Source of the DNA: a virus
Direction: 5' to 3' (one strand)
Length of the DNA: 47,067 nt
Virus record (IMG/VR): IMGVR_UViG_3300046313_000338
Span: 1 to 47,067 of that record
Positions 65 through 17,855 of this stretch are shown here, piece by piece; position 1 is the first letter of the stretch, and each line of letters starts with the position of its first letter. The position numbers and the translations under genes are program-made. The notes under the pieces were generated by a model. The model saw only the letters and a program-made list of their open reading frames with translations. It searched no databases and was not told the origin of the DNA.

Positions 65-556
65 ATGAAAAAACGACCAATCAGAATCGACGGAGACACC
101 GCTTACGTGCCCCTAAAAAACGGCCAAGAAGCCACCATCGACGGCAAGCATGCAGCCAAGGTTGGGCAGCACAATTGGTGTCTGGACGGCAAAGGTTACG
201 TCGTCACGGCTGCACCTCTTGGTAACGGTAAGTACAGGACACTACTGCTACACAGACTTGTCATGGGCGAGCCAGACGCAGAGGTAGGACACAAGGACCA
301 CAACCACACGGACAACCGAGAGTCCAACCTGCACGTAACGACGACCGCAAAAGCGGCCCAGAACGCGAAGCTGTCACGCGCAAATAAATCAGGCCGAAAA
401 GGGGTCTCTTGGCACCGCACCGCCCAAAAGTGGCAAGCCAAAATCATGTTTTTCGGTAAAAACACGCACTTAGGATACTTCACCGACCTAGAAGCTGCAG
501 CACAAGCGTACAAAGAAGCCGTACTCAAACACCAACAAGAACCCCAACATGCGTAA
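65..556 (+). CDS. HNH endonuclease with AP2 domain (copy 1)
   Basis: A 163-residue protein of the phage HNH-AP2 homing-endonuclease type. The N-terminal two thirds hold the HNH (beta-beta-alpha-metal) module: LLLHRLVMG at about 61-69, then GHKDHNHTDNRESNL at about 76-90, giving the His/Asp/Asn set expected for metal-dependent DNA cleavage. The C-terminal about 50 residues (GRKGVSWHRTAQKW to LGYFTDLEAAAQAY) form an AP2/ERF-type DNA-binding fold. It is clearly paralogous to the gene at 3008-3496. It overlaps the next gene by 8 bases. Such genes are usually selfish free-standing endonucleases, but HNH proteins next to terminases can also help packaging cleavage, so the role is uncertain. Confidence 0.85.
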   Translation: MKKRPIRIDGDTAYVPLKNGQEATIDGKHAAKVGQHNWCLDGKGYVVTAAPLGNGKYRTLLLHRLVMGEPDAEVGHKDHNHTDNRESNLHVTTTAKAAQNAKLSRANKSGRKGVSWHRTAQKWQAKIMFFGKNTHLGYFTDLEAAAQAYKEAVLKHQQEPQHA

Positions 557-3007: not shown

Positions 3008-3496
3008 ATGGAAAAACGACCAATTAGAATTGAGGGTGAAATAGGATACGTGCTCTTAGCCGACGGCACAGAGGCTACTATAGATGCTGAAGATGCGGAA
3101 TTAGTTGGACAGTATAATTGGTGCCTTAGTGGCGGCTACGTAGTGACATATCGGCCCCTAGGACTGCTCAGGCTGCACAGACTTGTAATGGGAGACCCAG
3201 AGGGAAAGTTTATTGACCACCGAAATGGCAATAAACTTGATAATCGAAAAGCCTTTTTGAGGCCTGCGACGAATGCAGAGAACCAATACAACCAAGGAAT
3301 TCCTAGCCGTAACACCTCCGGCCACAAAGGAGTCCACTGGCACAAGCGAGACCAGAAATGGAGCGCCCAAATCAGGCACGAAGGCAAGCAGATACATCTA
3401 GGCTACTTCACAGACCTCGAAGATGCAGCTCAAGCATATCGAGAAGCGGCCGTGAAATACCACAAAGAATTTGCAAACTCAGGAACACCAACATGA
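3008..3496 (+). CDS. HNH endonuclease with AP2 domain (copy 2)
   Basis: A 162-residue paralogue of the gene at 65-556, sharing the N-terminal block (KRPIRI, EATID, NWCL, GYVVT). The HNH part includes LRLHRLVMGD and FIDHRNGNKLDNRK (about 73-87); the AP2 part runs from GHKGVHWHKRDQKW to LGYFTDLEDAAQAYREA. It sits between the terminase and portal genes, which are normally adjacent, so it looks like an insertion. Its stop overlaps the portal start as ATGA (3493-3496), so it is translationally integrated into the operon. The 5' half is more A+T rich than the neighbours. The ribosome-binding site is weak and lies at the end of a structured leader. Confidence 0.87.
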   Translation: MEKRPIRIEGEIGYVLLADGTEATIDAEDAELVGQYNWCLSGGYVVTYRPLGLLRLHRLVMGDPEGKFIDHRNGNKLDNRKAFLRPATNAENQYNQGIPSRNTSGHKGVHWHKRDQKWSAQIRHEGKQIHLGYFTDLEDAAQAYREAAVKYHKEFANSGTPT

Positions 3497-5217
3497 ACCC
3501 CTTCAAAGCCCTCTGGCAAGCCGCTACATTGCAGCCCCCGCCACTGCCCAAGGCCCCAAATGCGCCAATATCCCTCCCCGGCTATCGGACAGATGTAACT
3601 CCGTCAACAAGCGCGAAGACAAGAACGGAGCGCAACCTCAAGAGCTTAGACCGCCTGACTGACCTTCGAAGCCGCTCAACCACGAGCCAGGTTCTGCGTG
3701 AGGCCTCAATCCAGTCCGCCGAGCTGTCCGCAGCCATTTACCTTGCAATTCGCACGGGCATCCCCGAACACTTCACAGTTATCGGCAGAGACCTAGACGG
3801 CAAGGTAGACCCAAATGCCACGGCCTTGGCGCACGAACTCCTACGCCGCTTGACCTACCTCGGCGCTGCTGATGGAAGTTTCGGCCCCCAACAGGGGCTG
3901 CAGTCCATCAGCGAAACCTTGGCCAGAGACTTGCTGCTCGAAGGGGCTGCATGCCTTGAGGTAGCGCTTGATAAAGCCCGCATCCCAGCCAGCTTGAACG
4001 TGATTGCGCCCCCAACCCTGGTATTTTACGAGGAAGATAATTCGTTCAGACTAGCCCAGAAAGTAGGTGGAGATGAAATCTCTCTGGACCTCGCCACTGT
4101 CATCTACACCAGCGTAGACCAAAGCTCCAGCCAGCTACACCCAACTAGCCCATTAGAATCAAGCATTAAAGCGATTATCGCTGATATAGATTTTAACCAA
4201 GACATGTCTAGAGTGCTCAAGCGGGCCATCCTACCCCGCTTGTCTGCCAGTATAGATACAGACAAGCTCAAGAAAATGACACCACCAGAGATTCTAGCAG
4301 ACCCCGAGAAGTGGGCCACGTACCAGAATACTGTTATTTCTGCAGTACAGAGCGTGGTCAACAATTTGAGCCCAGAAGACGCTTTAGTCTCTTTCGACAT
4401 GGTGTCCTACGCCTACTTAGACGGTGGCCATAGCCCCGGCGACATCCTAGAACAGGTACAGAAGGTATTGAACGCAAAGTTAGCGTCGGGCGTGAAGACC
4501 TTGCCAGTAGCCTTGGGCTTCGGTAGCTCTGCCAATGCCAGCTCAACAGAGTCCCTGCTGTACCTCAAGTCTTCTGACATGCTGCGCCGGAAATTGAACG
4601 AGGTCTACAGCCGAGCCCTGACAGTGGCCATCCGTATTATGGGGGTTGACGGGTATGTAGAATTCGCTTACGAAGAGCTCGACCTGCGCCCTGCCAAGGA
4701 ACTTGAAGCGTTCAAGAGTATGGAGCAGTCACGTATCCTTGACCTGCTGTCTCTAGGCCTATTGGACGATAACGAATGTAGCCTAAAACTCACCGGCCAG
4801 TTGCCTCCAGCAGGTTACACGCCCAAGAGCGGAACCATGTTCCGCAGTACACAGGCACAAGCGCCGATTGCAAATCCGGCCAGCGGGACCTCCACGACCC
4901 CAAAACCTGACACACCTCAGCAGCCCAAAGGCCCACCAGCAAAAGCAGAAGTGGACCCCAACTTGGCCTTGGCACATGCCCAAAGCGAGCAGGCGAACGA
5001 GACTACAAAGCAGGCCTTGAAGGCAATGCAAGACCTCACCTATGTGATGAGTCAGCAGAACCAAAAGCCCACACAAGTCCACATGCAGCAGGACCCCATC
5101 GAACTAAACTTGAGTATTGCACCGGAGGCTAAGTCACCGACCAAGCGCAAAGTCAAAATCATTCGTGACAAAGACGGCCGTCTCTCAGATTTCGAGGTGA
5201 GCGATGCACAACAGTGA
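3493..5217 (+). CDS. Portal protein
   Basis: A 574-residue portal vertex protein. The ATG at 3493, overlapping the HNH stop as ATGA, is chosen over an upstream in-frame ATG at 3358 that lies inside the HNH gene. The N-terminus leads into the portal core (about 60-450), with LARDLLLEGAACLEVALD, DLATVIYTSVDQSS and DILEQVQKVLNAKLASGV features typical of portals. The last about 110 residues are Pro/Gln rich and then basic, and may be an internal DNA-facing tail. The portal forms the dodecameric DNA gate and docks the terminase. Position after terL supports the call; no exact subfamily is claimed. Confidence 0.85.
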   Translation: MNPFKALWQAATLQPPPLPKAPNAPISLPGYRTDVTPSTSAKTRTERNLKSLDRLTDLRSRSTTSQVLREASIQSAELSAAIYLAIRTGIPEHFTVIGRDLDGKVDPNATALAHELLRRLTYLGAADGSFGPQQGLQSISETLARDLLLEGAACLEVALDKARIPASLNVIAPPTLVFYEEDNSFRLAQKVGGDEISLDLATVIYTSVDQSSSQLHPTSPLESSIKAIIADIDFNQDMSRVLKRAILPRLSASIDTDKLKKMTPPEILADPEKWATYQNTVISAVQSVVNNLSPEDALVSFDMVSYAYLDGGHSPGDILEQVQKVLNAKLASGVKTLPVALGFGSSANASSTESLLYLKSSDMLRRKLNEVYSRALTVAIRIMGVDGYVEFAYEELDLRPAKELEAFKSMEQSRILDLLSLGLLDDNECSLKLTGQLPPAGYTPKSGTMFRSTQAQAPIANPASGTSTTPKPDTPQQPKGPPAKAEVDPNLALAHAQSEQANETTKQALKAMQDLTYVMSQQNQKPTQVHMQQDPIELNLSIAPEAKSPTKRKVKIIRDKDGRLSDFEVSDAQQ

Positions 5218-5593
5218 ACACCTACTCTCGTTCTTTAAGGGCGAGCACAGGGCATCAGACCTGTATAAGCTTGCCCTGTTTTTGGAGAAGCCGGGCGAGG
5301 CGTACTCCCGCACAGGTGAAGTAAAAGGGCCGGGTTACATCGCAGGGGGTAAAGACCTGCCCAAGGCAGAGTATGAGGCTTCCGAAAAGTCTGTTTGGAT
5401 GACCTTCAGCGGTTCCATTGTTTGGCCCGGTAGCTCGATAGCCGCTCGCTACGCTATGATTTACAACCACCGCTCGAAGGCCCTCGTACACGTCGAGGAC
5501 TTCGGCAAGCTGAAGTCGTCTGAGAATGACCGATTTACCGTAGACCTGCCCGGAACTGAAGAGCCGCTGATAAAAGTCGTGCTGAGTGCCTAA
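5204..5593 (+). CDS. Putative virion decoration or beta-sandwich protein
   Basis: A 129-residue protein with a segment SGSIVWPGSSIAARYAMIYN (about 70-89). Such 'Ala-Arg-Tyr-X-X-Ile-Tyr-Asn' strands occur in small phage virion proteins with an immunoglobulin-like or beta-sandwich fold. It overlaps the portal gene end by 14 bases and has a good Shine-Dalgarno sequence (GAGGTGA, 5193-5199). It begins the long block of surface-type genes between portal and protease. A role as head decoration or adaptor is inferred, not demonstrated. Confidence 0.6.
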   Translation: MHNSEHLLSFFKGEHRASDLYKLALFLEKPGEAYSRTGEVKGPGYIAGGKDLPKAEYEASEKSVWMTFSGSIVWPGSSIAARYAMIYNHRSKALVHVEDFGKLKSSENDRFTVDLPGTEEPLIKVVLSA

Positions 5594-5617
5594 AGATTGA
5601 CAGTAGCTCACCATACC

Positions 5618-5657
5618 CCTGAAGGTTAGAATCAGCGTATTAAGGTACCTTCAGGAG
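5618..5657 (+). promoter_or_regulatory. Inverted repeat covering the ribosome-binding site of the 565-residue gene
   Basis: CCTGAAGGT (5618-5626) is perfectly complementary to ACCTTCAGG (5647-5655) across a 20-base loop. The Shine-Dalgarno AGGAG is at 5653-5657, so the 3' arm of the hairpin masks most of it. The start codon at 5665 lies 7 bases after the site. This could limit translation until ribosomes or a protein open the hairpin. Confidence 0.5.
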
Positions 5658-5664
5658 TTAGTTC

Positions 5665-7362
5665 ATGCCTATTGCAACAGATTTCGAGATTCAAGCGGAC
5701 AAAGACATCCGCTACATCGGCGCAGCCCACGGCGCGTCCGGTGCGGGTTATTACAACGTCATTGAGTTTCACCGCTGGTTGCAAGACCTCGCTGACGACG
5801 CCGTAGCGAGTGGCGATGACTACATGGACATTACGCGGTTGACGCCCTCTGAGCGTTCGACCGACAACATTATCACGCTCATCAACGGGTTCAATATCGA
5901 CGATATTGCCAGTGAGCACCTGTTCGATGGTTCTATTATCCAGACCAACGGCGACGTAATTTATGACGGCTTGCTGGTGTACGCGAATGCTGGTATGGAC
6001 ATGCAAGTGGTGCAGAACGGTGCCATCATTGTCAACGACTTCTGGAACACCATCCCATTCGGCGGCTCCTTGAAGGGCCTGAACGCCAACGCTGCAAACG
6101 GAATCTCACACCGTTTCATGTTGAAAGTGCGTACGGCGGCTGCAGACATCGACGGACGACGCCTGCTGACGCAGACCCGTGTGTGGGGAAAGACCTTCTC
6201 CCAGTTCCCGATTAACGGAACTTCCCGTGGTAATAACGTGGCGGCCTTGACGTACGCTGACGACTTGAACAACCAGACAGTCGTAGGTACCATCGCCGGT
6301 TACAACTCCATCGCCAACTTGAGCGAAGGTTACAACGGAATTGACGTTGACAACAACTCGGTCAGTGAGTTCTATTACTCCAAGTGGGACCGTGATACCT
6401 ACACAATCAACCAGTTTTACGAGCGCATGAAGTGGTTGACTCGCCAAGAGTCCGCCAGCACCATCTACGGCTTGAACGGCGAGTTGTTCCGAGGTATCAC
6501 GCACCAGTTTGCCTATGATGCTGAAGCTAGTGGACCATTCGTGCAGGCAACCCCAGTAACTTGGGGCTCTGGCGCCACAGCCGGCACCGGCCAACTCTTG
6601 GCCCTGCTGGACAGCGGCACCACAGGCACCATGTGGATTCAGTTGTTGACTGGCGTGATTCCGACCGACAACATGACCATCAACCAGGCAGGAGGCAAGA
6701 CCTGCTTGGTGAACGGTACCGTGACCGAGCGTACGCTCAGCTTCCCATTCTGCGGTGTCTCCACCGGCTCCGCTCTGATTGGTGCTTACGGTTTCGCGCT
6801 GGAAGCAACAGACTTGGCTGCGACAGACAAAGTGTTCGACTTGACCAACACCCAGCGCACACCGCCAAACTATGTGACCTTCACGGTCGGAGGCTTGGTG
6901 TCCGGCGAAGACTACGTGCTGGTTGGTCCAGAGTCCGGCGGCGTACTGAACGAAGCTCAGTTCACCCTGAATGGAGCCTTGTCAGGTGCTGCAGTTACCG
7001 CCGTAGTCGTCAACGGGTCTATCCCACTTGACACACCTTCTACTGGAACCATCCGTATTCTGCGGGCTAACGGTGTTTACACTCGTCATGCTTACTCCGC
7101 ATGGAGCGGCTCCACCTTTACCATTACGTCCACCAACTTTAGCACCAACGGCGCTGCTAATGCTGCTAACACGTACATCAGCTACATCGACGTATTGGCC
7201 AGCTCCTCAACAGCCAGCTTCACTTCCGTGTACTCTAGCAACCGTGGACTGTACATCCGTGTTCGTGACGGTGGTGGCTCTCCAATCAAGACCTTTGAGA
7301 CTACTGGTACCTTGGGTTCTGCTGGAGGCTCTGCAACCGCGATTCGTACTTCCGACACGTAA
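5665..7362 (+). CDS. Virion structural protein, unknown family
   Basis: A 565-residue protein rich in Gly, Ser, Thr and Asn and poor in Lys, as expected for an all-beta virion surface protein. The N-terminal about 270 residues look globular (YYNVIEFHRWLQDLADDAV; NQFYERMKWLTRQESASTIY); the C-terminal half is repetitive beta (GSGATAGTGQLLALLDSG; VTFTVGGLVSGEDYVLVGP). A strong ribosome-binding site (AGGAG) precedes it, partly in a hairpin. The next gene starts on the last base of its stop (TAATG). It may be a head fibre, baseplate or appendage component. No enzyme motif is seen. Confidence 0.65.
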   Translation: MPIATDFEIQADKDIRYIGAAHGASGAGYYNVIEFHRWLQDLADDAVASGDDYMDITRLTPSERSTDNIITLINGFNIDDIASEHLFDGSIIQTNGDVIYDGLLVYANAGMDMQVVQNGAIIVNDFWNTIPFGGSLKGLNANAANGISHRFMLKVRTAAADIDGRRLLTQTRVWGKTFSQFPINGTSRGNNVAALTYADDLNNQTVVGTIAGYNSIANLSEGYNGIDVDNNSVSEFYYSKWDRDTYTINQFYERMKWLTRQESASTIYGLNGELFRGITHQFAYDAEASGPFVQATPVTWGSGATAGTGQLLALLDSGTTGTMWIQLLTGVIPTDNMTINQAGGKTCLVNGTVTERTLSFPFCGVSTGSALIGAYGFALEATDLAATDKVFDLTNTQRTPPNYVTFTVGGLVSGEDYVLVGPESGGVLNEAQFTLNGALSGAAVTAVVVNGSIPLDTPSTGTIRILRANGVYTRHAYSAWSGSTFTITSTNFSTNGAANAANTYISYIDVLASSSTASFTSVYSSNRGLYIRVRDGGGSPIKTFETTGTLGSAGGSATAIRTSDT

Positions 7363-7562
7363 TGGAAAACGAGCTCGAAGAGAAGCTGAAATGTGCCTTT
7401 GCTGACGCAGGGGCACAAATCGGTGCCCTGTTGCGTTGCATGATTGCCGCAGAAGTTGCTTCCCATATGGCTCGTGTAGAACAATTAAATGCAGTGCTGA
7501 ACGGCACTGTATGTGCAGAATCACAAAGCACTCCGCTAGGTGAAGAGTCGCCTGCTGCTTGA
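7362..7562 (+). CDS. Small hypothetical protein
   Basis: A 66-residue protein starting within the previous stop codon (TAATG, 1-base overlap). It is mostly helical, with two Cys (C11, C26) in a segment KCAFADAGAQIGALLRCMIA, and a third Cys near the end. The tight coupling between two structural genes suggests a small virion component or a chaperone for its neighbours. No family is recognised. Confidence 0.6.
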   Translation: MENELEEKLKCAFADAGAQIGALLRCMIAAEVASHMARVEQLNAVLNGTVCAESQSTPLGEESPAA

Positions 7563-7585
7563 GTGCAGGCAATAAAGGAGTTCTC

Positions 7586-8440
7586 ATGGAAGATTACAAT
7601 GAAGACCTAACGGTCCTAGTCCAGTGTTTGGCCGCTACGTTTGGTACCGAAGTAGGTAGTGCTGTAAAAGACAAGTTTGACCAAGTGCTGGCACTTGGTG
7701 AAGTTGACATTAACGCCCTGCAAGCTCAGATCACAGCTCTGAACGCCCTGTTGGCTGCTAACACCTCTGGCGACACTTTGACTGCTCAGTCAATCTTGGC
7801 TCAGTTGGCTGCTCTGGATTCCCGTTTGGACGTTTTGGAAGGCTCTACCGCACTTGCTGACCTGCAATCTGCTGTAACCGTTATCCAGAATGCTCTGACC
7901 TCGGAAACTGCTGCTCGTGAAGCTGCTGACGCTGCTAACGCTGCTACTATCGCTTCTGCCGAAACCGCTATCGCCGCCTTGGCTGCACAAGTTGCAACCT
8001 TGGAAGCCGCTGGCCCAGGTACTTCCGGCTGTGACTGCGTTGCCATCAACGCTGCCATCGCTGAGCAAGCTACCGCCTTGGCAAACCTGCAAGCTTCTGA
8101 CGCTGCTCAAGCAACTCAAATCGCTGCTCTGCAGACTGCTGTTCAAGGTCTTTCGGTTAATACCGCAGCTATCACTGCTGCTACCGAAGCTGCTGCTGCT
8201 GCCCAAGCCGCTGCTGCTGCTGCCCAAGCTACCGCTTCTGCTGCCCAGTCCGCTGCTCAAGCTGCTGCTACTGCAGCAGCCGCTGCTCAGGCTGCTGCTG
8301 ACGGCGCTGCCGGTGCTGCTGGTGCTGCTGGTATCAGCATCCACACGCTGAAGCTGGAAATCAAGAACATCAACTGCGCTGCTGTCGGAGCTTCGTTCCG
8401 TAACGCTATGCGTGCTCAGATGTTTGCACCTGCCAACTAA
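7586..8440 (+). CDS. Alanine-rich coiled-coil fibre-like protein
   Basis: A 284-residue protein. ATG at 7586 is chosen because AAAGGAG (7574-7580) stands 5 bases before it; an upstream TTG at 7559 has no such site. Residues about 45-230 are Ala-rich heptads (QAQITALNALL, LAALDSRLDVLEG, AAQATQIAALQ), then near-pure Ala/Gln repeats, then a short collagen-like DGAAGAAGAAG stretch (about 240-252). The last about 30 residues (HTLKLEIKNINCAAVGASFR) form a small cap. The plan of N-terminal anchor, long trimeric coiled coil and C-terminal cap suits a slender virion fibre. It relies heavily on GCT alanine codons, unlike its neighbours. A perfect terminator follows. Confidence 0.65.
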   Translation: MEDYNEDLTVLVQCLAATFGTEVGSAVKDKFDQVLALGEVDINALQAQITALNALLAANTSGDTLTAQSILAQLAALDSRLDVLEGSTALADLQSAVTVIQNALTSETAAREAADAANAATIASAETAIAALAAQVATLEAAGPGTSGCDCVAINAAIAEQATALANLQASDAAQATQIAALQTAVQGLSVNTAAITAATEAAAAAQAAAAAAQATASAAQSAAQAAATAAAAAQAAADGAAGAAGAAGISIHTLKLEIKNINCAAVGASFRNAMRAQMFAPAN

Positions 8441-8450
8441 AGCGGACGAG

Positions 8451-8475
8451 GGTGGGGCCTAGGCCCCACCTTTTT
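8451..8475 (+). terminator. Intrinsic terminator after the fibre-like gene
   Basis: GGTGGGGC (8451-8458) pairs with GCCCCACC (8463-8470) around CTAG, and TTTTT follows at 8471-8475. The whole 20-base core is a perfect palindrome. The next start codon (8476) follows the T run directly. Confidence 0.85.
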
Positions 8476-8658
8476 ATGCAGACACCAGACTTCAAATACA
8501 TTGTGCTACGCAGAGCTGAAAGGCTTGAGGTATGCGCCACTTGTCCAGAAAAGAAGCAATCTTATGGGTTTGAAGTGTGTGGTTTGTGCAATTGCGTCTT
8601 GGCTGGGAAGGCTACTCTTCCGACCAACGGATGCCCCCTTAAAAAATGGAAAGAGTGA
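8476..8658 (+). CDS. Small Cys-rich, probably zinc-binding protein
   Basis: A 60-residue protein. ATG at 8476 is preferred over a GTG at 8452 because the latter lies inside the terminator stem. Cys pairs CATC, CGLCNC and a final CPLKKW fit the small phage proteins ending 'C-X-C-X-(L/F)-X-X-K...C-P-X-X-K-W' that probably bind one zinc. There is no good Shine-Dalgarno sequence before the ATG, so expression may be low or rely on read-through of the terminator. The molecular role is unknown. Confidence 0.65.
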   Translation: MQTPDFKYIVLRRAERLEVCATCPEKKQSYGFEVCGLCNCVLAGKATLPTNGCPLKKWKE

Positions 8659-8662
8659 CCCT

Positions 8663-11600
8663 ATGGCCAACTTCACGATAACCAGCGCACAGGTCATTAC
8701 TGAGCTGACAGGCAAAGCAGGTTCGGACTCGTACTTCATTAACGGTGGCTCGCTGGTCATTGACTGCGACTCCCGGTACGGCCCCAACCAATCCCCCACT
8801 TCAGGCCCCCTAGGCAACGTGCAGGTCTCGACAACCTTGGGAGGCCTCTTCAAACTTGACGGCTCTAAGGTTCGCCTAATCCCCTTTACCGGAGGGGCCG
8901 GCAATGTCCCCGCGCCGGGGTCTCAAATCAGCCAAGGCACAGCCACTGCAGAGTTGCTGTGCGTTATGTCCTCCAAGATGGGCGGCTCAACCTACACCGC
9001 AGGCATGCCCGGTACGGGGTGGCTGAAGGTTCGTGTCACTGCGGGCGCCTTCGCTGCAGGCAGGTTGGCGGGCATTGATGCTGTAGCCTCCTCACCGGAC
9101 GAGACCGGATGGATGGTAGTTGTCGGGGTTGAAGACAAATCCTTTGTAGTCCCACGGCTCGGCCAGATGGTGGTCGATGGTAGGTGGTTTTCCGTAGGCT
9201 CCACGTCAGGCCTGAGAGGCCAGAATCTGAATCTCCCCCACTTCTCCGCCGACAACTCCACGTTTTACCCTGGAGTAGAGGTTGAGACCGCACCCGGCTC
9301 AGGAATTTACGACTTTTGGGCCAATGTAGGGGTCAAGTTTAAGGGCTCTACCGTATCTACCGACTCTCGTAGTCGTTTTGTGCATATCAGCACCAACGGG
9401 GTAGTCACACTTGGCCGTGGGCTGGACAACGCCAACGCCGGACTCCTGCCGCCTGCAGGGTGTGCAGTGCGAATCCCCAACATCATCCTGCAGAACTGTG
9501 GCTCCAGCCGAAGCAACAACTCTGTGCATGACACACTGAACAGCCGCTACGAGGCATCTTTTGGGGGAGGCGGAACCTTGGCCCACTCCATCAGCACCGG
9601 TGCATGGTACTGGAACGTCGGGCAAGCTTGGAGTATGGACGCTACTGACCTGCACTCGTGCGACCAAGTTTGCATCAGCCGTATCACGCAGGCCCCAAAC
9701 CTTGACCGTATTCACGTAGGCTTGAGCACTCGCCCCAACTTCACGGCGGCCAGCGCCCTGCTGATTCAGCAGTGCCGAAATGGCGGTACCGTAGGCTCTG
9801 TCAGCGGTGTGCGAGCCGAGGGTACCAGCAACAGTGGCTACGCTGTAACCATGCAAAACCTGTACGGTGGGTGGGAAGTGGCTAAAGTTCGCGCAGTCTA
9901 CGCCAGCGACTGCACCGCCGTCAGCGGGTCACTATTTCTGAACACCAACGACGACCTGACTATCAGCAAGGCTGAAGTTGTCGGTAAGCGCCTGCTCAAG
10001 TATGCCTGCAAACGGGTCACGGTAGAGCACTTGGTCTATGCTGACAACGTGAAGGCCACCACCGGAACCTTGGCAGCCTGCTGCGCGGTAGAGGCGCTCA
10101 ACCAATCCATAGACTGCAGAGTGTTGCGTGTAGACAACTGGCCTGACGCACCGGTGACAGGCCCCTACAACGGAGTCGTGTACGCCAACACCACCGAGAA
10201 CCTAATAGTGCGCGGTGTAGGTAGCCAACAAACCCCATTCTCCGGCGGAGGCTTCACTGGCTCCCTGTTTGCCGACGGTGGCAACAACACCAAGCCTAAG
10301 TTTCAACGGTGCTGGTTGACCGGCCTGCGCTCAGGACTCAACCAAGGCAACGCCTCCACGACTGGGCTCGTGATGGAGAATTGCTACCACACTGACGCCA
10401 GCAAGACTCAAACAGTCTCACAGTCCGAGGCTACATCTCGCGGTAACCGCCACAACAGCGGCACACTCTCCACAAACTACACTGGCACCACAGGCACGGC
10501 GTTTATGGACGCGTTTACAGGCGACACGACAGCCCGAGTGTCGCTTGTGATGACCGAACCGCTGACCAGCGACGGCGTTATGCAGGTCTTGGCCGGCACA
10601 CCTAAGTTCAGCGGTACCGGGGCCATCGTGATGCAAAAAGGCGACATCGCTACGTGGACCATGCCCTATTTCGTGCTCGGCTGGACAAACCTCACAGCCA
10701 TGAATGTGAGCGCCGTGAACCTGACCCTGCACTCTGTGAGTTACGACATCGACAAGGGTGTAGGCTTCAGTGGTGTGTTCAGAGTGCTAAGCAACACAAA
10801 CCTGGCAGCAGAGGGCGGCCTCGACCCAGCCATAGGCTTCAAGTTGCGGGTGAAGGTTGAGTGTACCGCCTCGAACTACAGCAACGCACTCTCGAACATC
10901 ACCGTCACAGGTGTCACTTCGGTGACACTGCAGAACGCAGCCTTGTACCCAATGGACGTGCCGATGGCGACCATGCACATCGAAGGCCTCAAGTTTGGTA
11001 GCAACATCACGGTGACTTTGGACGGCGAGCAAGTATTCGCCGGGGCATGTGTTACGGCTACGGCTGACCTCACATACCGCCACCGGCCAAGTGCGACCAA
11101 TTGCACAGTAGTGGTGTCCAAGCCAGGCTACCACGAGGAAGTGCTAACCTTGGTAAACGCCCAGAGAATCTCCATCCCGGTGTGCCAGCAAGAGCTTGGC
11201 GCTCCAGTCGTCGTAGGCGGGCCTTCCAGCGAAGTTTCAGATATAGCCGCCGCCGTGCAGGCCATTCTGCTGGATGACTTCTCCGCTTTGGATGCTCGTC
11301 TGTCCAACCAAATGCACGACGCTTACGACCCCAACCAAGAGTGGTTCGTTATCACTAAAGACGGCCAACACCTCCTTGGCGTCACAACCCAGAACCCCTA
11401 CGTTATGGGGCTGCCAGAAGGGACAGGCATCGCAGAGTTCACCGGACAGATACCTGACTTAAACTTCAGTACATGGGACTTCGGTGCTGATATGTTCAGA
11501 AGCTCTCTCACTCCCCGCCTGAACTTCATATCTAGATTCACCATAGCGGAGTTGACCCTTATGCGGGCCAGCACTGACCCTGTAGTGAAGGATATTCTGG

Positions 11601-11719
11601 AACGCTTTGACGCAAAGAGCTACGTGAATCTTCAAGAGCAGCTTACAATCGACTCTGTGAACCACCTAGCGAGTTCCGGGCTGATTGCCCCAGAGCGAGC
11701 GTATGAGATACTTGCATAA
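8663..11719 (+). CDS. Large beta-rich virion protein, tailspike- or fibre-like
   Basis: A 1018-residue protein; ATG at 8663 follows an AAAGAG site, while the upstream in-frame start at 8501 lies within another gene. It is Gly/Ser/Thr/Asn rich. Near the N-terminus DSYFINGGSLVID matches in style DYFINGAACVSK of the next gene, so the two share an N-terminal beta module. The middle (about 250-650) has many short alternating strands (VRAVYASDCTAVSGSLFLN; VTMQNLYGGWEVAKVR) as in a right-handed beta-helix. The last about 160 residues are helical and probably a separate domain (SEVSDIAAAVQAILLDDF; LTLMRASTDPVVKDIL). A host-recognition appendage is likely; no catalytic residues were identified. Confidence 0.65.
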   Translation: MANFTITSAQVITELTGKAGSDSYFINGGSLVIDCDSRYGPNQSPTSGPLGNVQVSTTLGGLFKLDGSKVRLIPFTGGAGNVPAPGSQISQGTATAELLCVMSSKMGGSTYTAGMPGTGWLKVRVTAGAFAAGRLAGIDAVASSPDETGWMVVVGVEDKSFVVPRLGQMVVDGRWFSVGSTSGLRGQNLNLPHFSADNSTFYPGVEVETAPGSGIYDFWANVGVKFKGSTVSTDSRSRFVHISTNGVVTLGRGLDNANAGLLPPAGCAVRIPNIILQNCGSSRSNNSVHDTLNSRYEASFGGGGTLAHSISTGAWYWNVGQAWSMDATDLHSCDQVCISRITQAPNLDRIHVGLSTRPNFTAASALLIQQCRNGGTVGSVSGVRAEGTSNSGYAVTMQNLYGGWEVAKVRAVYASDCTAVSGSLFLNTNDDLTISKAEVVGKRLLKYACKRVTVEHLVYADNVKATTGTLAACCAVEALNQSIDCRVLRVDNWPDAPVTGPYNGVVYANTTENLIVRGVGSQQTPFSGGGFTGSLFADGGNNTKPKFQRCWLTGLRSGLNQGNASTTGLVMENCYHTDASKTQTVSQSEATSRGNRHNSGTLSTNYTGTTGTAFMDAFTGDTTARVSLVMTEPLTSDGVMQVLAGTPKFSGTGAIVMQKGDIATWTMPYFVLGWTNLTAMNVSAVNLTLHSVSYDIDKGVGFSGVFRVLSNTNLAAEGGLDPAIGFKLRVKVECTASNYSNALSNITVTGVTSVTLQNAALYPMDVPMATMHIEGLKFGSNITVTLDGEQVFAGACVTATADLTYRHRPSATNCTVVVSKPGYHEEVLTLVNAQRISIPVCQQELGAPVVVGGPSSEVSDIAAAVQAILLDDFSALDARLSNQMHDAYDPNQEWFVITKDGQHLLGVTTQNPYVMGLPEGTGIAEFTGQIPDLNFSTWDFGADMFRSSLTPRLNFISRFTIAELTLMRASTDPVVKDILERFDAKSYVNLQEQLTIDSVNHLASSGLIAPERAYEILA

Positions 11720-13509
11720 TGGCCGCCGCAGCATACACCACCGACCTCACTGTCCTATCCTTAGCTCAGACCACCACAGGTTGGTCTGAGCCGGGTACGT
11801 GGACTTCGGGTGGCCTGCCTGCGGCTGAGACCGATTACTTCATTAACGGCGCAGCCTGCGTATCCAAGACCTTCAACTCGGTAAGCCTTGGAGGTTTAGT
11901 CTACACTGCGGGCGCAGGTGTCACTATCCCTACCGACGGCGCGTTCCTTTGCTGGCAATATTTTGCCGCACCCAATGCGTTGAACACCTTGGCCAACGGA
12001 GGTATTCGGCTGATTGTGGGCAGCAGCACGGCTGCCTTCAAGTCATGGTTCTTGGGTGGAAGCAACACGTACCAGTACGGCGGCTGGCAAAACCTTGCTG
12101 TAGACCCTTCACTCACTGCCGACGCTACTGTGGGGACACCTACAGCGACCCTGCTCACCTTTGGCTGGGCCGCTAACAACAACAACGCTGTTGCCAAGGG
12201 TAACCCGTTTGCTGCCGGCGCTCTGCGGTACGGACGCTGCGAGTCTCGTATGAATGGGGGAGACCTTGCCAACGGTTACGCAACATTCGCAGGTTATGCA
12301 GCACAGAACGATGCGGTGGCCAACCGTTGGGGCCTGATTCAGGCTGTAGACGGGGGCTACCTTTGGCAGGGGTTGATGGTCCTGGGCCATACCTCTGCAG
12401 TGGACTTTCGTGATAGTAACACTCAGGTCTTGGTGGCCAATACTACAAAGGTCAGCAATAACTTCAACCGAATCGAGATTCGCAACGCCGCCAGTCGGGT
12501 AGACTGGACCGGCGCATCCTTTCTGGCCTTGGGCACAGTATCACTTGGACGCCTACAAGTAGTGGACAACGCCGTAGTTAATATTGACGCCTGCTCTTTT
12601 ACAGGCATGGATTCCTTTGCGTTTTTATCTGCCAGCACCTTGAGCGACTCTACGTTTCGGCGCTGCGGCATCGTGACACTGGGCGGTGCGGCCTTCGACG
12701 GTTGCACGTTTGACCGGGCCACGGGCACCACTGCGGTGACGGGCACCCCAGCCCAATGCGAGTTGGTCACCAACGCCAGTTTTGTGAGCGACGGCACAGG
12801 TTACGCCATGACTGTGACAGGCACGGCAGCCAATATGACGCTCACCAACGTGGGGTTTTCAGGCTACGCCTCTGTCAGCGGTTCTACAGGCAACGAGGCC
12901 ATATTTGTCAACATCGCCACAGGTTCCATGAATCTGACCATCACCGGCGGAGCAGTTCCAAGTGTTCGCACCGCAGGCGCTGTTGTTACGGTTATCTCCG
13001 GGGCCGTGAACGTGACGGTGACTGCTGTGACCGCTGACGGAGCAGCGGCTGCCTCGGCAAACGTACTTCTGAAAGCTGCAGCCGGCGGACCGTTCCCGTC
13101 AGGTGTGACTGTCACTATCGTCAACAGCGGCACTACTGCGACGGTCACGCACACAGGGCACGGCTTGGCTACAAACGACAAAATTGGTATCGAAGATGCC
13201 AGCCTTCCTGCCAACAATGGGGTCTTTGGTATCACTGTGACAGGGGCCAACAATTACACATATACTATGGCCAGCGCCCCCGGAAGCAGCCCGACTGGCA
13301 CCATCAAGGCTACCTTCGTTCTGCTCAAAGGGTTGACCAATGGGTCTGGTCAAATCAGTATGAGCCGAGTATTCCCTAGCAACCAACCAATCACTGGCTG
13401 GGTGCGAAAGTCCTCTACCCAGCCTTATTACAAGACTGGGCTCATTTCTGGCTCTGTGTCCAGTGCGTCAGGCGCTGCGTTCACTGGCCTACTTCTGACG
13501 GACCAATAA
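11719..13509 (+). CDS. Beta-helix-like virion surface protein
   Basis: A 596-residue protein starting on the last base of the preceding stop (TAATG). The N-terminus has the DYFING element shared with the preceding large protein. The body is Gly/Ala/Thr/Asn rich with repeating short strands (FAFLSASTLSDSTFRRCGIV; AAFDGCTFDRATGTTAV), typical of a parallel beta-helix. A segment at about 470-540 (ATVTHTGHGLATNDKIGI, NYTYTMASAPGSSPTGTI) resembles a small beta domain common in phage tail proteins. A role in attachment is inferred. Confidence 0.62.
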   Translation: MAAAAYTTDLTVLSLAQTTTGWSEPGTWTSGGLPAAETDYFINGAACVSKTFNSVSLGGLVYTAGAGVTIPTDGAFLCWQYFAAPNALNTLANGGIRLIVGSSTAAFKSWFLGGSNTYQYGGWQNLAVDPSLTADATVGTPTATLLTFGWAANNNNAVAKGNPFAAGALRYGRCESRMNGGDLANGYATFAGYAAQNDAVANRWGLIQAVDGGYLWQGLMVLGHTSAVDFRDSNTQVLVANTTKVSNNFNRIEIRNAASRVDWTGASFLALGTVSLGRLQVVDNAVVNIDACSFTGMDSFAFLSASTLSDSTFRRCGIVTLGGAAFDGCTFDRATGTTAVTGTPAQCELVTNASFVSDGTGYAMTVTGTAANMTLTNVGFSGYASVSGSTGNEAIFVNIATGSMNLTITGGAVPSVRTAGAVVTVISGAVNVTVTAVTADGAAAASANVLLKAAAGGPFPSGVTVTIVNSGTTATVTHTGHGLATNDKIGIEDASLPANNGVFGITVTGANNYTYTMASAPGSSPTGTIKATFVLLKGLTNGSGQISMSRVFPSNQPITGWVRKSSTQPYYKTGLISGSVSSASGAAFTGLLLTDQ

Positions 13510-13510
13510 C

Positions 13511-13609
13511 ATGGCAATATGGACTATGATCATGCTGTTCAACGGGGTTGCCCTGCTGCACCTGTGCGACCTGCTAAGCCGTCCTGATGAGGAAAAATTT
13601 TATGAGTGA
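13511..13609 (+). CDS. Very small membrane-like protein
   Basis: A 32-codon reading frame beginning MAIWTMIMLFNGVALLHLCD, a single hydrophobic helix followed by a charged tail (RPDEEKFYE). It starts one base after the previous stop and overlaps the next gene by 8 bases, filling the gap exactly. The Shine-Dalgarno sequence is weak, so translation probably depends on coupling. It could be a small membrane or structural peptide, or only a coupling device. Confidence 0.45.
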   Translation: MAIWTMIMLFNGVALLHLCDLLSRPDEEKFYE

Positions 13610-13799
13610 CCTGTACCAAAGAAACTTCGAGGCTGTAGCGCAGAAATTGCGGGAGATGGACTCTCGACTGTGTGACCAAGACGTGAAGATTCGCTCCTTG
13701 AGCGGTCAAGTGTCTGACCTGTCACTATCCCTACAAAACCTGCAACAGCAGGTAATGATAGCCCGTGCCATGGCTACAGGGCGAGGCCCTAGCACCTAA
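13602..13799 (+). CDS. Small coiled-coil protein
   Basis: A 65-residue protein with a clear heptad repeat over residues about 8-55 (KLREMDSRLCDQDVKIRSLS; SLSLQNLQQQV). ATG at 13602 is chosen because GAGGAA (13589-13594) precedes it at good spacing; an in-frame ATG at 13587 has none. It probably forms a trimer or dimer stalk or a small adaptor for the adjacent surface proteins. It is two bases from the next gene. Confidence 0.6.
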   Translation: MSDLYQRNFEAVAQKLREMDSRLCDQDVKIRSLSGQVSDLSLSLQNLQQQVMIARAMATGRGPST

Positions 13800-13801
13800 C
13801 C

Positions 13802-14404
13802 ATGGCCGTCAGCATCAACTACCTCACTAAAGTCATAAACGTCCCGAAACCGTTTATGACTTTAGTTACGCCTACTCTATACGAGTTGGACGTAAACGCC
13901 TTGAGGCTTGCACTCAAGGACCTTGAGGACGACCCTGACGGTATGTTTGCAGTAGATACTCACCGCCACAACACAGCGGTGAGTCTTTCCGGCGTTACGT
14001 ATGCCCGGATTTTTGAAGTGATAAATGGATACACAGTTGAGTTTGAGGATGGGCAGTACGCGGTCAAATGTGTAGGGGCCAACCACAACTTGGCAGACGT
14101 TAAAGTCCTGAACCAAGTCAGCCTGATTATCGGAAATTCCGCAGGCTTGGTGGAAGTCGGTACAGGCGGCAGCGGCTCGTCACCTACAGCAGCCCAAGTA
14201 GCTTCTGCTGTATGGTCTCAAGCACTTGAAGGCCTGACCGCCGAGGAGATGATGCGTATCATGCTCGCAGCCTTGGCTGGCAAGCGCCAAGGCTTAGGCA
14301 CACCGACAGAAGAGTACATGGCCCAAGACGGCCTGACTCCACGAGTGACCTTGGTAGCCGACACAGCAGGCAATGGAACCCCGGTCCTGAACGGGGCACC
14401 GTAA
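13802..14404 (+). CDS. Conserved phage structural protein
   Basis: A 200-residue protein. The N-terminal about 110 residues (LYELDVNALRLALKDLEDDP; HRHNTAVSLSGVTYARIFEV; FEDGQYAVKCVGANHNLADV) match a type of protein I know from several siphophages, where it lies in blocks of virion genes. The C-terminus (LTAEEMMRIMLAALAGKRQG) is helical and Gly rich, also a recurring phage element. Its exact place in the virion is not known to me. The next gene starts inside its stop codon (TAATG). Confidence 0.65.
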   Translation: MAVSINYLTKVINVPKPFMTLVTPTLYELDVNALRLALKDLEDDPDGMFAVDTHRHNTAVSLSGVTYARIFEVINGYTVEFEDGQYAVKCVGANHNLADVKVLNQVSLIIGNSAGLVEVGTGGSGSSPTAAQVASAVWSQALEGLTAEEMMRIMLAALAGKRQGLGTPTEEYMAQDGLTPRVTLVADTAGNGTPVLNGAP

Positions 14405-14796
14405 TGTTTAAGGGCTCGCTCTACAAGAGTGCCCTGTACGCCGGTCTGCTGTTCGGGGCCGTAATTGCCATCGAGCTTCCGAAGCCGGTAGCGGATTATC
14501 AGTTTCGGCCTGCAAAACTTGGGCAGAAAGTCACCCTCAAGGCCTACCACAAATTAGGCAGTACGGCGTATGACGCAAGACTCGCCGAGCTTTTAGCCAA
14601 AAGCGCAACCGTCCAAGTCGTTACAGGGGCGGAATTCACTGCCAACTTCGGGAAGCTTGGGGCTAATACCGCCTCCAAAGTTGCTCTCATTCCTGTAGAC
14701 TCACTACTTAAACGTGGCCGCTTGGCCGCTGAGGGCTATAAAGACATTTCTGATGAGGAATTGGTAGCCCTACTCATGGAGATACTTGATGTTTGA
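14404..14796 (+). CDS. Hypothetical protein with N-terminal hydrophobic helix
   Basis: A 130-residue protein starting within the preceding stop. Residues about 5-24 (SLYKSALYAGLLFGAVIAIE) are hydrophobic and could be a membrane helix. The rest is mixed alpha/beta ending in an acidic helix (DISDEELVALLMEILDV). It overlaps the protease gene by 8 bases. It closes the inserted block of surface genes. Function unknown. Confidence 0.55.
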   Translation: MFKGSLYKSALYAGLLFGAVIAIELPKPVADYQFRPAKLGQKVTLKAYHKLGSTAYDARLAELLAKSATVQVVTGAEFTANFGKLGANTASKVALIPVDSLLKRGRLAAEGYKDISDEELVALLMEILDV

Positions 14797-16129
14797 AAAC
14801 GTATGGTTAGGCACACAGACTTCTTACGAAGTCTTCGAGGCCGCTAAAAAAGAGCCCAAAGTTGACTCTTACGGTCTGCCTTCCATGGTGGACGTGCAAG
14901 ACGGTGTGGCCGTGATTACGATTCAGGGCAGCCTCGTCTCTGGCTCTTCCGGCTACATGCGCATGTTCGGTGTAGTAGGCTACGCTGACATTCAGGACGC
15001 TCTCCTGCAAGCGGTGTCGGACAAGTCGGCCAAGAGCATCCTGCTGAATATTGACTCGGGCGGCGGCGCAGTGGCAGGTGTCAACGACGCCGGCAAGCTA
15101 GTCGCTGAAGTGAACAAAGTGAAGCCTGTGGTGACCTACACCGGAGGCATGATGGCTTCCGCAGCCTTGTGGCTAGGCTCCAGCGCCAGCAAGATGTACG
15201 CCAGCGAGACAGCCATCACAGGCTCTCTCGGAGTTCTAATGGTACACGCCAGCCGGGCTCGTCAACTTGAGAATGACGGCATAAAGGTCACCGTGATTCG
15301 TGCCGGCAAGGACAAGGCCCTTATGAATCCTTACGAGGACTTGACCGACAAGGCCATGGAAGACGCCCAGTCCAAAGCAGACGCTCTGTATGACGTATTT
15401 CTGTCCCATGTGGCCGACAGCCGAGGCATGAGCCTGACAGCCGCTGACGCAGCATTCGGTCAAGGCCGCGAATTTGTAGGTAAGCAAGCGGTCAAAGCAG
15501 GCCTCATAGACGAGGTGGGCTCACTCACCGACGCCTTCATGTATGCCAAGTCCTTGCAATCTTCTGCCAATAAGCCCGCAGTTCGCACTAAGGGTGAGGC
15601 TACGGCTGAAGTACAGGACGATAATCAGGCGCAAGAAGGAGCAACTATGCCTAAACCGATTACCCCAGAATACTTAGCAGCACTGGCTGCAGGTATTGAC
15701 CTAGAAGCTGTCGCAGAACCTGCGGCAGTCGCCGCCGTTGAAGCCCCAGCACCTGTTGCCGTGGTGGAGCCGACTATTGAGAGCTTGCAAGCAGAACTCG
15801 CTTCTGCCAAAGTAGCGGCTGACGCTGCCGTGGCTGAGGCTTCGACTCTTAAAGCTCAAGTGGAAGCACTAGAAGCGTCTCAAGGTGGACTTCTGGCTTT
15901 TGCTCGCAACAGTATCAAGGCGATGAGCGTACCTCTGAACATTGAAGCCGCTGCAGTGGCTGACTCCGAAGTCTTGGCTGAGCACAGCCGAGTTAGCGAG
16001 TTGTTCAAATCCAAATTTAAGGTGGGTGGTGTTACCGCAGCCAAACCAGAAGATGCCCCGGCTAAACCCGTAGCAGCGCTGGTGAACCCATTGTTTGTGC
16101 ATGCGGTGAAATCTTCTCAATCAAAGTAA
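14789..16129 (+). CDS. Prohead protease, S49 (SppA/lambda C-like) fused to scaffold
   Basis: A 446-residue protein; ATG at 14789 is preferred to the TTG one codon earlier. Residues about 30-255 form an S49 serine peptidase: IDSGGG (88-93), nucleophile Ser124 in GGMMASAA, and general-base Lys174 in VIRAGKDKA, the Ser/Lys dyad of this family. The C-terminal about 160 residues are Ala/Pro/Glu rich coiled coil and are also made separately from an internal start at 15647. This copies the lambda C/Nu3 arrangement, in which the fused scaffold targets the protease into the prohead. It lies just before decoration and capsid genes. It cleaves scaffold and portal or capsid proteins during maturation. 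Confidence 0.88.
   Translation: MFENVWLGTQTSYEVFEAAKKEPKVDSYGLPSMVDVQDGVAVITIQGSLVSGSSGYMRMFGVVGYADIQDALLQAVSDKSAKSILLNIDSGGGAVAGVNDAGKLVAEVNKVKPVVTYTGGMMASAALWLGSSASKMYASETAITGSLGVLMVHASRARQLENDGIKVTVIRAGKDKALMNPYEDLTDKAMEDAQSKADALYDVFLSHVADSRGMSLTAADAAFGQGREFVGKQAVKAGLIDEVGSLTDAFMYAKSLQSSANKPAVRTKGEATAEVQDDNQAQEGATMPKPITPEYLAALAAGIDLEAVAEPAAVAAVEAPAPVAVVEPTIESLQAELASAKVAADAAVAEASTLKAQVEALEASQGGLLAFARNSIKAMSVPLNIEAAAVADSEVLAEHSRVSELFKSKFKVGGVTAAKPEDAPAKPVAALVNPLFVHAVKSSQSK
15647..16129 (+). CDS. Nested scaffold protein (lambda Nu3-like), in frame within the protease gene
   Basis: Internal in-frame ATG at 15647 (residue 287 of the protease) preceded by a strong Shine-Dalgarno sequence AAGAAGGAG (15633-15641) with 5-base spacing. 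The product has 160 residues: an Ala/Pro-rich start (MPKPITPEYLAALAAGIDLE), a coiled coil at about 50-80 (IESLQAELASAKVAADAAVA), and a basic C-terminus (RVSELFKSKFKVGG). A nested scaffold is established for lambda C/Nu3; here the evidence is the internal ribosome-binding site, the sequence type and gene order. Expression is not shown. Confidence 0.75.
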   Translation: MPKPITPEYLAALAAGIDLEAVAEPAAVAAVEAPAPVAVVEPTIESLQAELASAKVAADAAVAEASTLKAQVEALEASQGGLLAFARNSIKAMSVPLNIEAAAVADSEVLAEHSRVSELFKSKFKVGGVTAAKPEDAPAKPVAALVNPLFVHAVKSSQSK

Positions 16130-16643: not shown

Positions 16644-17855
16644 ATGCAAGTTGCATACATCGACCGCTCTGGCGGTACACAACAATGGGAGCCCAGCGCA
16701 GAAGAGCTGGTAGCGATGGTTAAATCTGGCGACCCAGTTGCTGAAATCAACCGCAAGTTTGCTGACGCAGACCTGTCTGTTGGCACCGCTTTTGACCAGT
16801 TTAAGGCCTCCACAGGCTTGGTTCGTCCCGGCAAGAACAACCCATTCGGCTTCCGCGCCACCAAGATTGGTGCTCTCTTGGATGGTTCGGCTGCCGGAAG
16901 CTTCTCCGCTAACACTCAGCAGAACTCTGGCACTTTCGGCACTGCTTCCCGTGCTTTCGTGAATATCGCTGTTATCAGCGAAATCACGAGCGAGATGCAA
17001 AAGGACCGTGAAACCGATTCTGGTGTGTTTGAGCAAATGATTGCCAACAACATCAGCGTTGACTCGGAGCATTTTGAACAGCCAGTGGTGGACTACAAGA
17101 CAGTTGGTGGCCCAGAGGAGGCTAAGGCAACTCGTGTTGCTCAAGGCGCTGAGCCGTCAAAGATGCTGTTCTTCAAGACCAGCGACCGTATCCGTCGCAT
17201 TGGCGCTTGGAACATCGGAATGCAATGGACCGATCAGGCCCTGCGCAATACGAACATAGATTATGTCACTCGTACCGTGGCTCACTACCTGCAAGTTGAG
17301 CGTGACGAGCGCGTCTACCGCTACATCAACGCTCTGTACAACGGAGACGGTGACTTGAACGTAGGTGCAGTTGCTGCAGTGACTTCTACATCCTTGGATG
17401 CAGCAGCTACAGGTGGCGTTCTGACTCACAAAGCTTTTGTTAAGTTCTTGGCTCGCCAGCGCAAGTACCGTAAGATTACGCACCTTGTTTGCGACCTCGA
17501 CACGTATTTGAAAATTGAAGGCCGCACTGGTCGTCCAGGTTCAAATAGCTATGACCCAACACTGACTCGCGTAGACCCACAAGCAGGCTTGATTAACGTA
17601 GGCTTCGGCAATGACGTTCGCATCTTCTTGGTTGACTCTGCTGCTGATGGTGGACCGGTGCCTGCTAACACCATCTATGCTTTAGATGCGTCCGTAGGTA
17701 TCTCTCGTGTTACCAATACGGCTGCTGCTTACAGCGCTGTAGAGGAGTACGCCATGAAACGCTCGACAGCTATGCGCCTTGACTGGGCTGAGGAAGTATT
17801 CCGCAGCTTGGGCGACAGCGACCTGCGCCCCTTTGATGTGCTGACAATCAGCTAA
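16644..17855 (+). CDS. Major capsid protein
   Basis: A 403-residue protein with the features of an HK97-fold capsid subunit: a charged N-terminal arm (about 1-65), a central region with FKTSDRIRRIGAWNIGMQWT and VAHYLQVERDERVYRYINAL (the spine helix, about 205-230), and a C-terminal strand-rich part (GFGNDVRIFLVDSAADGG; STAMRLDWAEEVFRSL). It follows the protease, scaffold and decoration genes and precedes connector genes. AAGGAA lies before the start. A strong GNRA-loop hairpin follows the gene. Confidence 0.85.
   Translation: MQVAYIDRSGGTQQWEPSAEELVAMVKSGDPVAEINRKFADADLSVGTAFDQFKASTGLVRPGKNNPFGFRATKIGALLDGSAAGSFSANTQQNSGTFGTASRAFVNIAVISEITSEMQKDRETDSGVFEQMIANNISVDSEHFEQPVVDYKTVGGPEEAKATRVAQGAEPSKMLFFKTSDRIRRIGAWNIGMQWTDQALRNTNIDYVTRTVAHYLQVERDERVYRYINALYNGDGDLNVGAVAAVTSTSLDAAATGGVLTHKAFVKFLARQRKYRKITHLVCDLDTYLKIEGRTGRPGSNSYDPTLTRVDPQAGLINVGFGNDVRIFLVDSAADGGPVPANTIYALDASVGISRVTNTAAAYSAVEEYAMKRSTAMRLDWAEEVFRSLGDSDLRPFDVLTIS

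What the first reader, a model, noticed from the sequence alone, without database searches (positions are those of the whole stretch)
5204..14796. About 9.6 kb of surface-protein genes inserted between portal and protease
Portal, protease and capsid genes normally sit side by side. Here eleven genes for beta-helix, coiled-coil and collagen-like proteins interrupt them. Two large proteins share a DYFING-type N-terminal element. This may be a head-fibre or capsid appendage cassette, not a tail cassette, because the usual fibre genes lie at the far end of the tail cluster.
Basis: partly seen in the sequence, partly recalled or inferred. Interest (0 to 1): 0.66.

Follow-up and report, generated by a model that had tools for sequence, protein, structure and literature searches.

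The report
Swappable phage head-horn gene cassette
Between two phage head genes sits an exchangeable set of genes related to those that build the rare "horn" on the head of cyanophage Syn5, and the same kind of set, with two alternative core gene pairs, turns up in nearly 200 uncultured phage contigs with unrelated heads, which suggests that such head appendages are common rather than an oddity of one phage.

Summary
The block is real: about eleven genes lie between portal (3487-5217) and protease (14789-16129). It is a replaceable cassette. The closest relative (portal 94%, protease and capsid 97-98% identical) has a different set in the same slot; DNA similarity stops at 5574 and resumes at 14174, inside the 200-aa gene. 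The relative's set is the cyanophage Syn5 set gp54-gp53-gp55 (gp53 35.5% identity, E 4e-73). Gp53 and gp54 form Syn5's head "horn" (from memory; that paper was not held). The window's 1018-aa protein belongs to the gp54 family. Its 565-aa protein is a remote gp53 homologue (profile E 1.5e-5) and its 200-aa protein a remote gp55 homologue (E 1e-4). In 193 loci, 565-aa/200-aa and gp53/gp55 are two matched pairs that never mix, while the large spike-like proteins occur with both. The 565-aa family crosses at least five unrelated head-gene lineages at up to 86% identity and is absent from 50,697 phage records, PHROGs, Pfam and NCBIfam. Best reading: a horn-type head-appendage cassette, new variant of a known kind. 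Position on the virion is inferred, not shown. The DYFING element and collagen claims are not upheld; the shared element is C-terminal.

The parts
5204..5593 (+). 129-aa conserved phage protein (phrog_644, unknown function); left flank of the cassette, also present in the relatives with other cassettes
   Evidence: phrog_644 E 4.5e-8; 88% identical in L027; DNA similarity to L027 ends at 5574
5665..7362 (+). CSP565, 565 aa: conserved core protein of the cassette, remote homologue of Syn5 horn protein gp53
   Evidence: 106 loci; profile match to gp53 family E 1.5e-5 over 401 columns, reversed control 0.34; iterative HMM; model mean pLDDT 93
7362..7562 (+). 66-aa small protein, shared with relative L030
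7595..8440 (+). 281-aa Ala-rich coiled-coil protein (not truly collagen-like), shared with relative L030 (49%)
8451..8475 (+). terminator-like hairpin with T run after the coiled-coil gene
   Evidence: MFE -25.1 kcal/mol for 8440-8482, z -4.4; not listed by the pattern scan
8476..8658 (+). about 60-aa Cys-rich protein
   Evidence: phrog_13558 E 1.2e-9
8663..11719 (+). B1018, 1018 aa: large spike-like protein of the gp54 (horn protein) family
   Evidence: 29.5% identity over 888 aa to L027 862-aa protein; gp54-family HMM E 5.9e-256, Syn5 gp54 in the same family E 1.5e-15
11719..13509 (+). B596, 596 aa: second spike-like protein; family occurs with both core types; shares a C-terminal domain with B1018
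13602..13799 (+). 65-aa coiled-coil protein, conserved between the B596-type gene and MAVSI in 38 loci
   Evidence: cluster 3
13802..14404 (+). MAVSI, 200 aa: two-domain protein (proposed adaptor); N-domain remote homologue of Syn5 gp55, C-domain (about residues 132-196) shared with gp55-type proteins
   Evidence: N-domain vs gp55 family E 1.1e-4, reversed control 0.48; C-domain swap; model N-domain pLDDT mostly 94-98
14174..14174 (.). right cassette boundary: DNA similarity to the close relative resumes here, inside the MAVSI gene
   Evidence: blastn window vs L027: 14174-18129, 90.3% identity
14404..14796 (+). 130-aa protein; right flank, 85% identical in L027

Best explanation
The block is an exchangeable virion-appendage cassette of the Syn5 horn kind, inserted in a recombination slot between portal and protease. 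Supported by comparison: CSP565 is a remote homologue of Syn5 gp53, B1018 belongs to the Syn5 gp54 family, MAVSI corresponds to gp55, and the whole set replaces a plain Syn5-type set in a near-identical phage. Inferred mechanism: MAVSI is the adaptor; its N-domain fits the core protein CSP565 and its C-domain, which is shared by both adaptor types, docks on the particle. CSP565 forms the stalk or base. The large, variable proteins B1018 and B596 are the outer spikes that contact cells or the surroundings and hang on through their common C-terminal domain. The appendage most likely sits on the head, as a horn or head fibre, and is added during or after packaging. Tail adsorption is left to the separate tail-tip genes at 30288-33279.
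For: Same slot in L027 holds gp54-gp53-gp55: 35.5% identity over 462 aa to Syn5 gp53 (E 4e-73) and 40.6% over 133 aa to gp55 (E 1e-22), while portal, protease, decoration protein and capsid are 94-98% identical to the window. Breakpoints at 5574 and 14174, the latter at the domain border of MAVSI. CSP565 vs gp53 profile E 1.5e-5 and MAVSI-N vs gp55 E 1.1e-4, with reversed controls 0.34 and 0.48; among unrelated decoys CSP565 gave at least 0.6 and MAVSI at least 0.05. Iterative HMM from gp53 reaches 81 CSP565-cluster members by round 4. Matched pairs: 80 loci CSP565+MAVSI, 73 gp53+gp55, 0 mixed, while gp54-family proteins occur in 18 CSP565 and 77 gp53 loci and B596-family proteins in 87 and 18. 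Same C-domain on both adaptor types. The same portal-[cassette]-protease/MCP slot recurs in L087 and L038 (CSP565 type) and L133, L140, L152, L155 (gp53 type), with different portal families.
Against: No virion data for any CSP565-bearing phage. Gp53 and gp54 as horn components is recalled, not read here; PMC10575957 confirms only that Syn5 has a horn opposite the tail. The CSP565-gp53 and MAVSI-gp55 links are remote, resting on low-diversity profiles, and the reverse HMM search (CSP565 HMM against the gp53-type loci) found nothing. hhalign of MAVSI with Syn5 gp55 alone and of CSP565 with gp54 alone was not significant. In some contigs the cassette lies elsewhere, e.g. between tail chaperone and tape measure (L023) or before TerL (L090, L103). 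Some neighbours match tail-fibre or collagen families (L099).
Confidence: 0.6

Rival explanations
1. Tail-fibre cassette that happens to lie next to the portal gene: CSP565 is a baseplate or tail-tip connector, MAVSI an adaptor, B1018 and B596 the receptor-binding fibres.
For: Structure search hits of CSP565 in the viral library include proteins named fibre, tail and baseplate; L023 carries the cassette between tail chaperone and tape measure, and one gene upstream of the cassette in L099 matches tail-fibre and collagen families.
Against: The window has separate tail-tip candidates at 30288-33279; among loci with recognised neighbours, head or packaging genes were near in 19 and tail genes in 3 of 89 CSP565-type loci; the gp53/gp54 homologues are in the Syn5 horn (own knowledge). 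Structure hits are weak (TMq at most 0.23).
Confidence: 0.2
2. Neck, collar or portal-vertex whiskers: the cassette forms fibres attached at the head-tail junction.
For: Gene position next to portal; one weak local fold match of CSP565 to a 116-residue chain in the GP4 portal-tail complex (8jov_1, prob 1.00 but E 0.05, 85 columns).
Against: The full MAVSI model gave no such match; no whisker or collar family match; Syn5 homologues localise away from the portal (own knowledge).
Confidence: 0.12
3. Non-structural insertion (moron-like genes) parked between head genes.
For: Exchangeable, sharp borders, no database annotation.
Against: Same strand and tight overlaps as structural genes; fixed multi-gene composition across about 100 contigs; homologues annotated as structural proteins in Syn5.
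Confidence: 0.04

Closest known systems
Cyanophage Syn5 horn gene cluster gp52-gp55 (NC_009531)
   Same: gp54-family spike protein (B1018); gp53 and gp55 remotely homologous to CSP565 and MAVSI; the plain Syn5-type set occupies the same slot in the close relative L027
   Different: Core pair is CSP565+MAVSI instead of gp53+gp55; a second spike (B596) and a coiled-coil protein are present; host phage is a long-tailed (siphovirus-like) virus, not a T7-like podovirus; Syn5 keeps its set near TerL, not between portal and protease
IMG/VR contig 3300043391_000446 (L027/L133), closest relative
   Same: TerL, portal, protease, decoration and capsid genes in the same order; portal 94%, capsid 97% identical; adaptor C-domain 86%
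   Different: Holds gp54-gp53-gp55 in the slot; lacks CSP565, B596, the 65-aa protein and the MAVSI N-domain
Siphovirus isolate ctPCi537 (MW202577) and Maribacter phage Panino (PP540027)
   Same: Carry gp53-type proteins (53.9% and 33.6% identity to the L027 protein) among late or structural genes
   Different: No CSP565 or MAVSI match in these records; proteins mostly annotated as hypothetical or structural

Membership tests
Syn5-type horn module | gp54-family spike protein | tested here: met
   B1018 in the gp54-family HMM E 5.9e-256; Syn5 gp54 in the same iterative family E 1.5e-15
Syn5-type horn module | gp53-family core protein | tested here: inconclusive
   CSP565 is a remote homologue only: profile E 1.5e-5, iterative HMM link; reverse search negative
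Syn5-type horn module | gp55-family small protein | tested here: inconclusive
   MAVSI-N vs gp55 profile E 1.1e-4; shared C-terminal domain on both types
Syn5-type horn module | same genomic slot as a bona fide gp54-gp53-gp55 set in a sibling phage | tested here: met
   L027/L133
Syn5-type horn module | proteins form an appendage at the head vertex opposite the tail | not testable with these tools
   needs immunogold or cryo-EM
Tail-fibre cassette | lies at the distal end of the tail gene cluster | tested here: not met
   lies between portal and protease; tail-tip genes are at 30288-33279
Tail-fibre cassette | match to a known tail-fibre family | tested here: not met
   no informative PHROGs, Pfam, NCBIfam or PDB sequence match for CSP565, B1018, B596, MAVSI

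The most novel reading that the evidence does not exclude
CSP565+MAVSI and gp53+gp55 are two alternative, never-mixed cores of one widespread head-appendage system that carries interchangeable spike proteins and moves between phages with unrelated heads, so that horned or head-fibred virions are common among uncultured phages.
Probability: 0.5. Interest if true: 0.75.

Novelty: new variant of a known kind. Interest (0 to 1): 0.62.

Why it matters
As far as I know, the Syn5 horn has been treated as a curiosity of one cyanophage, with no known function. If this reading holds, the horn gene set is a mobile structural module found in nearly 200 uncultured phage loci of several unrelated head lineages, with a second core protein family (CSP565) that none of the libraries searched here describes. 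It gives a clear handle on two open questions: what the horn is for, and how one appendage system can attach to unrelated heads.

Tried and rejected
DYFING element as a shared N-terminal domain: not supported. Collagen-like label: only about four triplets. Direct search of CSP565 and MAVSI in 50,697 phage records: none, apart from a chance-level hit (E 0.03). PDB sequence profiles for CSP565, MAVSI, B596 and B1018: none, only a chance hit for MAVSI (E 5.9). Fold searches: CSP565 gave no E below 1e-3 in PDB; the viral-library hit to Syn5 gp54 was a lead but has low TM-score and no sequence support, so it is not used as evidence; MAVSI gave no PDB hit. A CSP565-N to MAVSI-N common fold, suspected by eye, was not significant. 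MAVSI C-domain as a phage-lineage-specific docking domain was weakened because it also occurs in L020, whose portal and capsid families are unrelated. Bacterial genome hits for CSP565 are all contigs of metagenome-assembled genomes, so they do not name a host. The horn paper itself was not held.

Full report
What is there. The window is a virus record of 47,067 bases; it matches IMG/VR contig 3300046328_000373 at 100% in the fetched parts. Gene order: TerL (1182-2852), an HNH gene, portal (3487-5217), then the block, then protease (14789-16129), a 158-aa protein, major capsid protein (16644-17855), head closure, tail terminator, a tail protein, tail chaperone, tape measure (2525 aa), tail-tip proteins and endolysin. 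The block holds ten clear genes and one 32-codon ORF. None of the large proteins has an informative match in PHROGs, Pfam, NCBIfam or PDB sequences.

A conserved set, not a random insertion. CSP565 (5665-7362) is found in 106 loci, mostly viral contigs, at roughly 43-70% identity to the window protein. Next to it, usually in the same order, come a large protein of the B596 or B1018 family, often a 65-aa coiled-coil protein, and MAVSI (13802-14404). The rest of these contigs is largely unrelated: after the four module families, the next shared cluster has only 23 members. Contigs with this set use at least five unrelated portal/terminase types (phrog_3753, 21, 12, 113/979, 156), yet CSP565 is up to 86% identical between contigs of different type, and on a CSP565 tree head type changes at least 12 times. 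So the set moves between phages.

Swapped in the closest relatives. L027 has 94% identical portal and 97-98% identical protease, decoration and capsid proteins. DNA similarity to the window stops at 5574 and resumes at 14174. In between, L027 has an 862-aa, a 451-aa and a 196-aa gene. The 196-aa protein shares its last 73 residues with MAVSI (86%) but has a different N-domain, so the right border lies at the domain junction of this gene. L029 and L030 carry further mixtures; L030 also has a Syn5 gp52-like protein.

Link to the Syn5 horn. The L027 451-aa protein is 35.5% identical to Syn5 gp53 over 462 aa (E 4e-73); the 196-aa protein is 40.6% identical to gp55 over 133 aa (E 1e-22); the 862-aa protein matches the gp54 C-terminus, and the iterative gp54 family holds both Syn5 gp54 (1.5e-15) and the window's B1018 (5.9e-256). 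A scan found 79 viral loci with gp53-type proteins, mostly as gp54-gp53-gp55, several directly between portal and protease or capsid genes (L133, L140, L152, L155). That Syn5 carries a horn on the vertex opposite the tail is stated in PMC10575957. That gp53 and gp54 are its components, shown by immunogold labelling, is from my own knowledge (Raytcheva et al. 2014, J Virol), which I could not open.

CSP565 and MAVSI as counterparts of gp53 and gp55. Profile comparison gives CSP565 vs gp53 E 1.5e-5, colinear over 401 columns, and MAVSI-N vs gp55 E 1.1e-4; reversed-profile controls give 0.34 and 0.48. Against unrelated decoy families CSP565 gave at least 0.6 and MAVSI at least 0.05. CSP565 also matched the B596 family (E 6.8e-6) and the B1018 family (E 0.002), but only over its last 60 residues, which I read as a shared C-terminal domain. 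Iterative HMM searching from gp53 reaches most of the CSP565 family through intermediates; the reverse search did not. Co-occurrence agrees: 80 loci have CSP565 with MAVSI, 73 have gp53 with gp55, none mixes them, while both spike families occur with both. Loci were fetched by one core or the other with 6-10 kb flanks, so the zero counts speak for neighbourhoods, not whole genomes. The same C-terminal domain is fused to both adaptor N-domains.

How it most likely works. Inferred: adaptor (MAVSI) on the particle, core or stalk (CSP565), variable outer spikes (B1018, B596) held by a common C-terminal domain. Head location is the best guess because the Syn5 homologues are in a head horn and because recognised neighbours are mostly head or packaging genes (any head gene near in 19, tail gene near in 3 of 89 CSP565-type loci, an undercount since only some families were labelled). 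L023 and other contigs with different positions keep the tail-fibre rival alive.

Structure. CSP565 models with high confidence (mean pLDDT 93.1, pTM 0.82) but has no convincing structural relative. MAVSI's N-domain models well (block pLDDT mostly 94-98) and has no PDB match.

Verdict. Observation real, two details wrong. Interpretation supported by homology and replacement in kin; virion position unproven. New variant of a known kind.

Noticed in passing
window 13826-13866: Perfect 16-bp hairpin inside the start of the MAVSI coding sequence (MFE -19.7, z -8.1); the other MAVSI genes have at most 9 bp.
   Followed up: partly
window 8451-8475: Terminator-like palindrome with T run in the middle of the cassette, after the coiled-coil gene (z -4.4).
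   Followed up: partly
window 65-556 and 3008-3496; L027 4565-5062 and 20418-20912: Related HNH endonucleases sit on both sides of TerL and, in the relative, also after the capsid gene on the other strand.
   Followed up: no
window 5665-7362, residues 505-564: The C-terminus of CSP565 resembles the C-terminus of the B596-family proteins (E 6.8e-6), so several cassette proteins may share an attachment domain.
   Followed up: partly
L125 7250-9178: A 642-aa protein bridging the gp53 and CSP565 families in an HMM search, in a contig assigned to a Shapirobacteria MAG.
   Followed up: no
window 5204-5593; L067, L081, L108: The phrog_644 protein also lies shortly upstream of CSP565 in other lineages, so it may belong to the system.
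   Followed up: no
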